Positions 30,582 to 43,813 of a DNA stretch of 64,000 nucleotides are shown here, piece by piece. The stretch comes from a virus, in IMG/VR virus record IMGVR_UViG_3300048930_000242, positions 89,341 to 153,340 of that record; one strand, written 5' to 3'. The notes below the pieces were generated by a model that was given only the letters and a program-made list of their open reading frames with translations, did no database searches and was not told the origin of the DNA. Position 1 is the first letter of the stretch; every line of letters begins with the position of its first letter. The position numbers were made by a program, and so were the translations under genes.

Positions 30582-30656
30582 TGGAGGTCAGGGTGGGAGT
30601 CGAACCCACCTACAACGGGTTTGCAATCCGAGGCATAGCCGCTCTGCCACCTGACC
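30582..30656 (-). tRNA. tRNA-Cys (GCA)
   Basis: Acceptor GGTCAGG/CCTGACC, anticodon loop TTGCAAA, encoded CCA. Confidence 0.9.
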
Positions 30657-30659
30657 GGA

Positions 30660-31055
30660 AATTCTTGCACCGTATCGGCGGTGCCACCCGGATAGACTTG
30701 GTCAGCCAACGTCTATCAGATCAGCCTCAAGCAGCCATAGCTACCGGAGCAAAGTACTCGTCATTTGCGGTTACTTTAGGTTTGGACTCTTTAGGACGGA
30801 CTTGCCGACTTAAGCAAGCTACCCGATCCACGCGAGCTACCATCTCGGATCGCCAACAGGTTAGTATGACATCAGTCGAAGCCAGGGCAGGCCCATCAAA
30901 AGCTCTTTAGGTGGCTCCGGGTCTTGATACGGAGCACTTACATCCCCTTTCGTACCTAAAGGGCTTATGGTGGACCTGGCGGGAATCGAACCCGCGTGTT
31001 GCTGCCTTTTCGCTGTCAGTTTACGATCATTCAAGCCCTAATCGCGCGAACGACT
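30660..31055 (-). ncRNA. ssrA: tmRNA, circularly permuted (two-piece) form
   Basis: Rescues stalled ribosomes by trans-translation. The acceptor piece comes first: a T arm (GCGGG TTCGATT CCCGC), acceptor strand CAGGTCC and ACCA, ending at 30968. After a ~73-nt spacer the coding piece starts at 30894 with GGGCCTG, which pairs with the acceptor strand (one G-U), followed by CTGGCTTCGAC, a tmRNA hallmark. The tag frame (30768 down to 30727, preceded by AGTAACC) encodes ANDEYFAPVAMAA and a TGA stop. Several hairpins follow, as expected for the pseudoknots. Outer ends are approximate. Confidence 0.9.
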
Positions 31056-31066
31056 TCGGGAATCCG

Positions 31067-39572: not shown

Positions 39573-40211
39573 TTATTTTCTTCCGCTTCTCCATCCTTCT
39601 GGAATCTCTTGATCTTTCTTAATCTTCTTATTCAGGATTCCATCTGTAATCCATTTAGTTCCGAATTGTGAATTTTTAGAACCTTCTCGTGCACCTTTTA
39701 ATGTTTGACTAATTTTTCTTTTAGTTTCATCGGAATGTGTTTTTCCATTCCAATCAAATCGTTCATCACCTAAAAAGTATTTTCCATAAATCTTAAACCG
39801 AGTTTTCGCTGTGTTTGCGGCTCTAAGACTTCGACGAATTGGATCAATTTCGTCGTTTTTACTAATCTTTTCATTTCCAATAAGAGAAAGATTTTTTCTC
39901 TTATGTGAATCATACGATTGATTCGCAAAATCCCAACCACCTTCTCCGCCAATCTTTAAATTGTAACATTTGCCGGAATCGAGAACTTCTTCAGTCACCA
40001 ATTCTTTCTCTTTTGAGAAAGCCTCTTCTTTCGTTTCAAAGGAGTAAAGAACTTCTTTCACAAAATTCTCTACTCCGTACTTCTTGATTGCGTACTTAAG
40101 CCTCTTACCTGAACCCAGATAGTCATCATTGGGGTCAGTGGTCTTATGTACGCCTATATAGAACATTCCGTTAATCTTATTGGTTGTCCTATAGACTGTA
40201 TAGACTAACAT
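39573..40211 (-). CDS. GIY-YIG homing endonuclease
   Basis: 212 aa. GIY-YIG domain: TVYRTTNKINGMFYIGVHKT, with YLGSGKRLKYAIKKYG and the KEKELVTEE segment (catalytic Glu). C-terminal NUMOD-type DNA-binding modules: KTHSDETKRKISQTLKGARE and PEGWRSGRK. Close paralogue of the gene at 43169, with nearly the same first 90 residues. AT-rich; ends exactly where tRNA-Thr begins. Late-type motif 30 bp upstream (40241-40247). Confidence 0.88.
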   Translation of the reverse strand: MLVYTVYRTTNKINGMFYIGVHKTTDPNDDYLGSGKRLKYAIKKYGVENFVKEVLYSFETKEEAFSKEKELVTEEVLDSGKCYNLKIGGEGGWDFANQSYDSHKRKNLSLIGNEKISKNDEIDPIRRSLRAANTAKTRFKIYGKYFLGDERFDWNGKTHSDETKRKISQTLKGAREGSKNSQFGTKWITDGILNKKIKKDQEIPEGWRSGRK

Positions 40212-42256: not shown

Positions 42257-42505
42257 CTATGCTGCATCCACTGTGATCAGCAGAGTGCCACCTGGAAGCT
42301 GCTGCTCGAAGGTGATGCCCATCCGCGGGAAGTTCGTGTAGGCCAAACGATCCACGTAGTAAAGGAAGTCGACCGCTCGCTCTGGAAGCTTGGAAACGTC
42401 CACTGAGTCGAGGCAGTCATGGATCGTCGGCCCGACGACAATTCGCTCAGCTACCGGCTCGCCAAGCAGGTCAACTATTGCAAGGGTGATCATTGCGGAA
42501 CTCAT
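42257..42505 (-). CDS. Small hypothetical protein (82 aa)
   Basis: Start MSSAMITLAIVDLLGEPVAE, overlapping the deformylase stop as ATGA. Alpha/beta pattern with VVGPTIHDCLDSVDVSKLPE. No family recognised. Confidence 0.6.
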   Translation of the reverse strand: MSSAMITLAIVDLLGEPVAERIVVGPTIHDCLDSVDVSKLPERAVDFLYYVDRLAYTNFPRMGITFEQQLPGGTLLITVDAA

Positions 42506-43182
42506 GCTGCTTCTCCTTTTTCCTTGGCCATTTCTTTGAACTTTCGGCGGTACTTCTTCTCGCGGCGCTTCCCGTCTTCCTTGGCGTATTCCCAATGGAG
42601 AGAAGTCACTCGATCCTGCATGGTAATGCCCATCAGATGATCGAACTCATGCTGCCACACGGTTGCCGCGAAGCCATCGACCGATCCAGACCGAGGGTTG
42701 CCCTTGATGTCCAAGAAGTCCACATCGATCCTGGCCAATCGAGACACGGTGACCTGGACGAACGGGTAGGACAAACAGCCCTCGATTCCGGTCGACTTTT
42801 TGGTATAGCTCGATGGCTCGGTGTTCTCGAAGATCTTCGGATTGCATGCCACCAGAAACTCAGTGGCGTCGTCCTTGGTCGGAACTACGATCATCGCATA
42901 CGGCAAACCCATCTGAGGAGCGGCGATGCCAACGGCCTTCATGGCCATCAGCTGAGCGACCAGAACTTGAGCCGCCCTGGAGACCAATTCGGTCTCGGTG
43001 AACATCCTCGGATGGATCTCGGCGGTCAGAGTATGGAGCACCGGGTCGTCGCAATGGATCAGCTTCGGGCCAGAATCCAACCAAGATTCGAAATCACTCT
43101 TAGTCTTAATGAACACATCATCGTCTAATGAATGAGTTTTGTAAGTTTCGTTAAAAAATTCAACGCTATTATCTTGGTTCAT
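42502..43182 (-). CDS. def: Peptide deformylase
   Basis: 226 aa. Removes formyl from new proteins. All three motifs are present: GIAAPQMG (85-92), EGCLSYP (134-140) and QHEFDHLMG (177-185), giving Cys/His/His metal ligands and the catalytic Glu. An extra ~50-residue N-terminus and a basic C-terminal tail (KRREKKYRRKFKEMAK) extend beyond the core. Its first 14 bases overlap the end of a homing endonuclease gene. Confidence 0.92.
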   Translation of the reverse strand: MNQDNSVEFFNETYKTHSLDDDVFIKTKSDFESWLDSGPKLIHCDDPVLHTLTAEIHPRMFTETELVSRAAQVLVAQLMAMKAVGIAAPQMGLPYAMIVVPTKDDATEFLVACNPKIFENTEPSSYTKKSTGIEGCLSYPFVQVTVSRLARIDVDFLDIKGNPRSGSVDGFAATVWQHEFDHLMGITMQDRVTSLHWEYAKEDGKRREKKYRRKFKEMAKEKGEAA

Positions 43183-43813
43183 AATCGGCGGCCTTTAATT
43201 TTCTTGCGTTAGTGTTGCCTATTCTTGATTTTGCCATGTTCTCTTTTGCTTCTTTTGAAAATCTAACTCTTCCATATTGCCACCCAGCCGGAAGATTTTC
43301 AGATTTGCTTATTTGCTTTTCTTCAATGCCGTTAGAAATCCATTTTGTTCCGTATCCTTTACTTTTCTCGCCGACGTATTTGCCTTTTAAAGCAAGGCTC
43401 ATTTTCATTTTCGTTTCTTCAGTAGCAATTAAGCCGGTTCTAGAATTACTAATCCTAGATTTTGTTTCTTTCGAATGAGTTCTTCCATATTGAACTCCGT
43501 TCGGAAATTTATCTAAGAGAGACTTCCTAGCAAAATCCCAACCACCTTCTCCACCGATTTTCAAATTATAGCATGATCCAGAATTAAGAACTTCTTCAGT
43601 GACCAGCTGTTTCTCTTTGGTGTAGGCTTCTTCTTTAGAATCAAAGGAATAGAGAACTTCTTTTACAAAATTCTCTGCTCCATATTTCTTGATTGCTCGC
43701 CTAATCCATTTTCCAGACCCAAGATAATGATCGTCCTGATTTGAAGTTTGGTGAACTCCAATATAGAATTTCCCGTCAATTAGATTAGTGGTTCGGTAAA
43801 CAGTGAATTTCAT
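43169..43813 (-). CDS. GIY-YIG homing endonuclease
   Basis: 214 aa. FTVYRTTNLIDGKFYIGVHQ and the conserved YLGSGKWIRRAIKKYGAENF and KEKQLVTEE (catalytic Glu) define a GIY-YIG nuclease; NUMOD-type modules follow (KETKSRISNSRTGLI; PAGWQYGRV). Paralogue of 39573. AT-rich. Its end overlaps the deformylase start by 14 bp, the same placement as the endonuclease next to gp39. Confidence 0.88.
   Translation of the reverse strand: MKFTVYRTTNLIDGKFYIGVHQTSNQDDHYLGSGKWIRRAIKKYGAENFVKEVLYSFDSKEEAYTKEKQLVTEEVLNSGSCYNLKIGGEGGWDFARKSLLDKFPNGVQYGRTHSKETKSRISNSRTGLIATEETKMKMSLALKGKYVGEKSKGYGTKWISNGIEEKQISKSENLPAGWQYGRVRFSKEAKENMAKSRIGNTNARKLKAADYEPR

What the first reader, a model, noticed from the sequence alone, without database searches (positions are those of the whole stretch)
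30660..31055. Phage-encoded circularly permuted tmRNA
The acceptor piece precedes the coding piece, the two acceptor strands pair, and a tag frame ANDEYFAPVAMAA with stop follows the expected resume signal. Two-piece tmRNA is established in alphaproteobacteria, so this gene suggests the host group and shows that the phage brings its own ribosome rescue, perhaps with a tag chosen for host or phage proteases.
Basis: partly seen in the sequence, partly recalled or inferred. Interest (0 to 1): 0.85.

Follow-up and report, generated by a model that had tools for sequence, protein, structure and literature searches.

The report
Phage two-piece tmRNA gene, ordinary
This bacterial virus carries a gene for a two-part RNA that frees stuck ribosomes and tags unfinished proteins for destruction; the gene is real and looks complete, but many aquatic phages already carry one, so it is a new example of a known thing.

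Summary
A circularly permuted (two-piece) tmRNA gene lies on the MINUS strand at about 31060-30660. ARAGORN calls it with tag ANDEYFAPVAMAA; Rfam tmRNA_permuted (RF04321) scores 88 bits, E=1.5e-15; 40 shuffled copies of the window gave no tmRNA call. The two strands of the acceptor stem, 73 bases apart, pair 7/7 (GGGCCUG/CAGGUCC) and keep the alanine-identity pair G3-U70. The phage is a divergent T4-type myovirus (153-kb record) with about 34 tRNAs, a GOLLD RNA, and no detectable smpB, SspB, ClpP or integrase.

"Suggests alphaproteobacteria" fails: no clade model passes its cut-off, and permuted tmRNAs also occur in phages of Stenotrophomonas, Xanthomonas, Alcaligenes and OM43. "Brings its own ribosome rescue" is half true: it brings the RNA; SmpB, AlaRS, processing enzymes and protease must come from the host. 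Phage two-piece tmRNAs are already published (PMC9004378); more than 100 further viral contigs turned up here. Verdict: new member of a known kind, low to moderate interest. Side leads: viral tmRNAs with 23-33-residue tags, and a CUA-anticodon tRNA-like element inside the GOLLD RNA.

The parts
30968..31060 (-). acceptor (tRNA-like 3') piece of the permuted tmRNA, with T-arm and encoded CCA (30970-30968); 5' end approximate
   Evidence: ARAGORN, RF04321 alignment, sequence
30972..30978 (-). 3' strand of acceptor stem, CAGGUCC
   Evidence: pairs 7/7 with 30894-30888; U70 of the G3-U70 pair
30895..30967 (-). intervening spacer (73 nt), predicted hairpin stacked on the acceptor stem; expected to be removed
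   Evidence: stem plus spacer -36.9 kcal/mol, z -4.35, 0 of 200 shuffles as stable; spacer alone z -1.76; end-to-end pairing in 93% of 128 unique viral spacers vs 44% of shuffles
30660..30894 (-). coding (mRNA-like) piece beginning with GGGCCUG; 3' end approximate, before tRNA-Cys at 30656
   Evidence: ARAGORN, RF04321, cofold with the acceptor piece re-forms the acceptor stem
30727..30768 (-). tag reading frame ANDEYFAPVAMAA plus TGA stop, first codon GCA
   Evidence: ARAGORN coding part 293-334; sequence
30667..30717 (-). two hairpins after the tag (30717-30691 and 30684-30667), probable 3' structure or processing/terminator element
   Evidence: -21.5 kcal/mol, z -2.88, 1 of 200 shuffles as stable

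Best explanation
A functional permuted ssrA gene of a divergent T4-type phage. Most likely the tRNA cluster is transcribed as precursors; host RNase P and 3' nucleases cut out the 73-nt spacer, leaving an acceptor RNA and a coding RNA held together by the 7-bp acceptor stem and other pairing. Host AlaRS charges it (G3-U70), host SmpB delivers it to ribosomes stalled on broken mRNA, the chain switches to the GCA codon, ANDEYFAPVAMAA is added, the TGA releases the ribosome and host ClpXP-type proteases destroy the tagged chain. The phage benefits by keeping ribosomes free while mRNA is being degraded and by depending less on the host's own tmRNA. Shown: gene architecture, pairing, tag frame, phage context, lack of detectable smpB in the record. 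Inferred: transcription, cutting, charging, SmpB use, tagging, benefit.
For: ARAGORN and RF04321; no false call in 40 shuffles; intact 7-bp acceptor stem with G3-U70, while pair 4-69 is C-G where RF04321's consensus has G-C, so the stem is kept by a paired change; hairpin of spacer plus stem; MAA tag end, and 90 of 111 unique viral permuted tags end in LAA, MAA or IAA; position inside a same-strand cluster of about 34 tRNAs; phage genes on the record; equivalent genes in many phages, which suggests selection keeps them.
Against: No expression or processing data. No close relative of this particular gene was found, so its own conservation could not be measured. The record has no detectable smpB, so activity depends on a compatible host SmpB. 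The inter-piece helix that the covariance model assigns beyond the acceptor stem was not verified separately.
Confidence: 0.87

Rival explanations
1. A decoy: the RNA is made and binds host SmpB or AlaRS but mainly inhibits host trans-translation rather than rescuing ribosomes.
For: Mycobacteriophage DS6A carries a tRNA-like-domain-only tmRNA; a molecule of that sort inhibits tmRNA (PMC4131195, PMC11915505).
Against: Here the tag frame, resume region and stop are complete; a decoy would not need them, and viral tags keep protease-type endings.
Confidence: 0.06
2. A relic: an ssrA copy picked up from a host, for example by integration at ssrA, no longer functional.
For: ssrA is a common integration site (PMC11915505), and host-derived fragments occur in prophages (PMC9004378).
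Against: The gene is whole with a perfect acceptor stem; no integrase family match in the record; it sits in a tRNA cluster of a T4-type phage; its T-arm plus CAGGUCC acceptor occurs in no recognised permuted tmRNA among 33 matches in 84,980 bacterial and archaeal species, 32 of which are standard tmRNAs or tRNA-Ala.
Confidence: 0.04
3. Chance resemblance or a tRNA fragment miscalled as tmRNA.
For: Covariance models for tmRNA can hit tRNAs (PMC11915505).
Against: E=1.5e-15, full-length model match 1-213, two independent programs, 0 calls in 40 shuffles.
Confidence: 0.01

Closest known systems
Two-piece tmRNA of Methylophilales phage Melnitz and other aquatic phages (PMC9004378)
   Same: Permuted ssrA in a T4-type myovirus; gp23 of the window phage is 43% identical to Melnitz gp23; RF04321 match in Melnitz 113 bits.
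   Different: Melnitz's is described with a glutamine riboswitch; no riboswitch family matched here. The window gene's own acceptor stem and tag were not compared with Melnitz's in detail.
Permuted tmRNAs of Stenotrophomonas phages Marzo/IME-SM1 and Xanthomonas phage X1
   Same: Permuted, Marzo's inside a tRNA cluster; X1 has the identical GGGCCUG/CAGGUCC acceptor stem and 96% identity over 50 nt.
   Different: Tags VAANDDSYTVRIAA and VAANDADYSVARYA; spacers 57 and 126 nt versus 73.
Rfam tmRNA_permuted RF04321 (alpha, beta and cyanobacterial permuted tmRNA merged)
   Same: Scores 88 bits, above gathering 47.
   Different: Below the cut-off of the beta clade model (57 of 84 bits), and no alpha_tmRNA match at its cut-off; C4-G69 instead of consensus G-C.
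One-piece tmRNAs of mycobacteriophages (Bxz1 group) and Bacillus phage G
   Same: Phage-encoded tmRNA in large phages (PMC4131195).
   Different: Here the gene is permuted; that those are one-piece is from general knowledge.

Membership tests
permuted (two-piece) tmRNA gene | acceptor piece encoded upstream of coding piece, separated by a spacer | tested here: met
permuted (two-piece) tmRNA gene | acceptor strands pair across the spacer and carry the alanine-identity G3-U70 pair | tested here: met
   7/7 pairs, G3-U70
permuted (two-piece) tmRNA gene | T-arm GGGTTCGATTCCC and encoded CCA | tested here: met
permuted (two-piece) tmRNA gene | tag reading frame with stop and C-terminal hydrophobic-Ala-Ala | tested here: met
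   ANDEYFAPVAMAA*
permuted (two-piece) tmRNA gene | score above Rfam RF04321 gathering cut-off | tested here: met
   88 vs 47 bits
permuted (two-piece) tmRNA gene | precursor is cut into two mature RNAs | not testable with these tools
   needs Northern blot or RNA-seq; only a spacer hairpin is predicted
alphaproteobacterial tmRNA (RF01849) | score above the clade model's cut-off | tested here: not met
   no alpha_tmRNA match at gathering; in the permissive scan the beta model was the clan's best, itself below its cut-off
self-sufficient trans-translation system | smpB on the same genome | tested here: not met
   PF01668 no match in the 153,340-base record, with 10 of 14 controls positive; the record may be incomplete

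The most novel reading that the evidence does not exclude
Phage permuted tmRNAs form virus-borne lineages, independent of the host's own tmRNA form, whose acceptor stems have drifted by paired changes so that phage halves pair with each other and not with the host's two-piece halves: an RNA insulated from its host counterpart. The window's C4-G69 and C5-G68 pairs would mispair with a host GGGGGUG coding piece.
Probability: 0.12. Interest if true: 0.55.

Novelty: new member of a known kind. Interest (0 to 1): 0.28.

Why it matters
It adds one more, very divergent, T4-type phage to those carrying a two-piece tmRNA and shows that the permuted form cannot by itself be used to name a phage's host. 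The survey made around it indicates that such genes are common and varied in viral metagenomes, with paired changes in the acceptor stem and some unusually long tags, which could be tested for how phages manage stalled ribosomes.

Tried and rejected
DNA search of the gene against 50,697 phage records found nothing at E 1e-5; the exact tag pattern and a coding-piece pattern found nothing in viral contigs. The gp23 relative search in viral contigs gave only three weak loci. I first thought the CAGGUCC acceptor might mark a single viral lineage, because the same pattern matched no permuted tmRNA in cellular genomes. A scan with three free positions showed that viral permuted acceptors are of many kinds (AGC, ACC, CGG, AGG, ATC and others), so that claim was dropped. 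A crude cofold test of halves from different phages was not decisive: the window's cognate pair (-6.2 kcal/mol) is no stronger than its acceptor's crosses with same-stem phages (mean -7.3). Sampling host permuted tmRNAs was not possible because no proteobacterial genome handle was available. SspB and ClpP searches in the record were negative.

Full report
Observation. On the minus strand ARAGORN calls a permuted tmRNA at 31060-30636 with tag ANDEYFAPVAMAA, and Rfam RF04321 (tmRNA_permuted) matches 31028-30727 over its whole length with 88 bits, E=1.5e-15. First-order Markov shuffles of the window (40 copies) gave no tmRNA call. The acceptor piece comes first, ends in an encoded CCA at 30968, and is followed by a 73-nt spacer and the coding piece that starts GGGCCUG at 30894. 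The ends pair 7/7, including G3-U70. The spacer is predicted to form a hairpin; together with the acceptor stem it folds at -36.9 kcal/mol, z -4.35, with none of 200 shuffles as stable, although the spacer alone is only z -1.76. ARAGORN's lower limit overlaps tRNA-Cys by 21 bases and is not the true end.

Context. The window is bases 89341-153340 of a 153,340-base IMG/VR viral record. Other parts encode a T4-type major head protein, portal, tail sheath, large terminase, helicase and DNA polymerase. It is far from known phages: no megablast match for 24 kb, gp23 at most 46% identical (Desulfovibrio phage), then Sinorhizobium phages and Melnitz. The tmRNA lies in a same-strand cluster of about 34 tRNAs covering all amino acids except Ser and Tyr, with one tRNA of undetermined identity, and a GOLLD RNA. 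SmpB, SspB, ClpP and phage-integrase families have no match in the record.

How common. In a check of 122 pattern matches (these, the window, and one cellular locus), 107 had a GGGCCTG that could be the partner strand within 250 bases downstream. The same pattern in 84,980 bacterial and archaeal species gave 33 places: 24 standard tmRNAs, 8 tRNA-Ala genes and one without a call; none permuted. A second viral scan with three free acceptor positions found many other acceptor types, so the stem is variable among viruses. Over 164 viral genes, pairs 4-69, 5-68 and 6-67 change in a paired way while G3-U70 holds in 160. Caution: the patterns fixed part of the 3' strand, my filter fixed G1 and G2, and 106 of the 164 share one stem. 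Spacer ends pair in 93% of 128 unique spacers against 44% of mononucleotide shuffles.

Named phages. RF04321 matches Stenotrophomonas phages Marzo, IME-SM1 and DLP6, Xanthomonas phage X1, Alcaligenes phage QDWS595, Caulobacter phage CcrPW, Pelagibacter phage HTVC008M, Melnitz and a crAss-like Bohxovirus; Sinorhizobium phages phiM12 and phiN3, Ochrobactrum phage OC and the Desulfovibrio phage have none. PMC9004378 says two-piece tmRNA is known in most Alphaproteobacteria, some Gammaproteobacteria (the former Betaproteobacteria) and Cyanobacteria; that Xanthomonadaceae themselves have one-piece tmRNA is from general knowledge and was not tested. The permuted form therefore does not point to an alphaproteobacterial host. 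In the permissive Rfam scan the best clade model is beta_tmRNA, 57 bits against a cut-off of 84.

Known or new. PMC9004378 found 402 tmRNA-bearing phages, with 53 of 133 unique structures two-piece, mostly aquatic. PMC11915505 lists 79 unique phage tmRNA sequences and built RF04321. So this is a new member of a known kind.

Mechanism. The best-supported reading is a working two-piece tmRNA that uses host SmpB, AlaRS, processing enzymes and proteases. Steps from transcription onward are inferred. Decoy and relic readings are less likely because tag frame, acceptor stem and spacer are intact.

Noticed in passing
window 38049-37592 (-): GOLLD RNA (200 bits) with a tRNA-like element at 37981-37919 in its linker region. 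Its anticodon loop reads CUA (amber), its acceptor stem is irregular and no CCA follows. TAG is used as a stop in 14 of 149 ORFs, so the phage does not look recoded. tRNAs in GOLLD linkers are known (PMC12286853); a CUA anticodon there may be worth a look.
   Followed up: partly
L064, L098, L155, L147, L090 and about 40 other viral loci: Viral permuted tmRNAs with tags of 23-33 residues (e.g. ANADTFDFSAMSFTGNTVRGAANESRFALAA), many sharing the resume context GTAAATGCAAACGC, with synonymous differences between contigs. The most frequent tag length in the tmRNA database is 10 (PMC11915505).
   Followed up: partly
L329 1172-1361 (Bohxovirus PV686213): Permuted tmRNA match (70.6 bits) in a crAss-like phage, with CACUA in place of the CCA end and not called by ARAGORN.
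   Followed up: partly
window 40496-40423 and 35363-35287 (-): tRNA genes with an undetermined two-base anticodon or marginal score.
   Followed up: no
window 42502-43182 (-): Peptide deformylase gene (PF01327, 110 bits), another translation-related gene of this phage.
   Followed up: no
window 39573-40211 and 43169-43813 (-): Two similar-looking proteins of about 213 residues; the first matches GIY-YIG (weakly) and NUMOD3, probable homing endonucleases next to the tRNA cluster.
   Followed up: no
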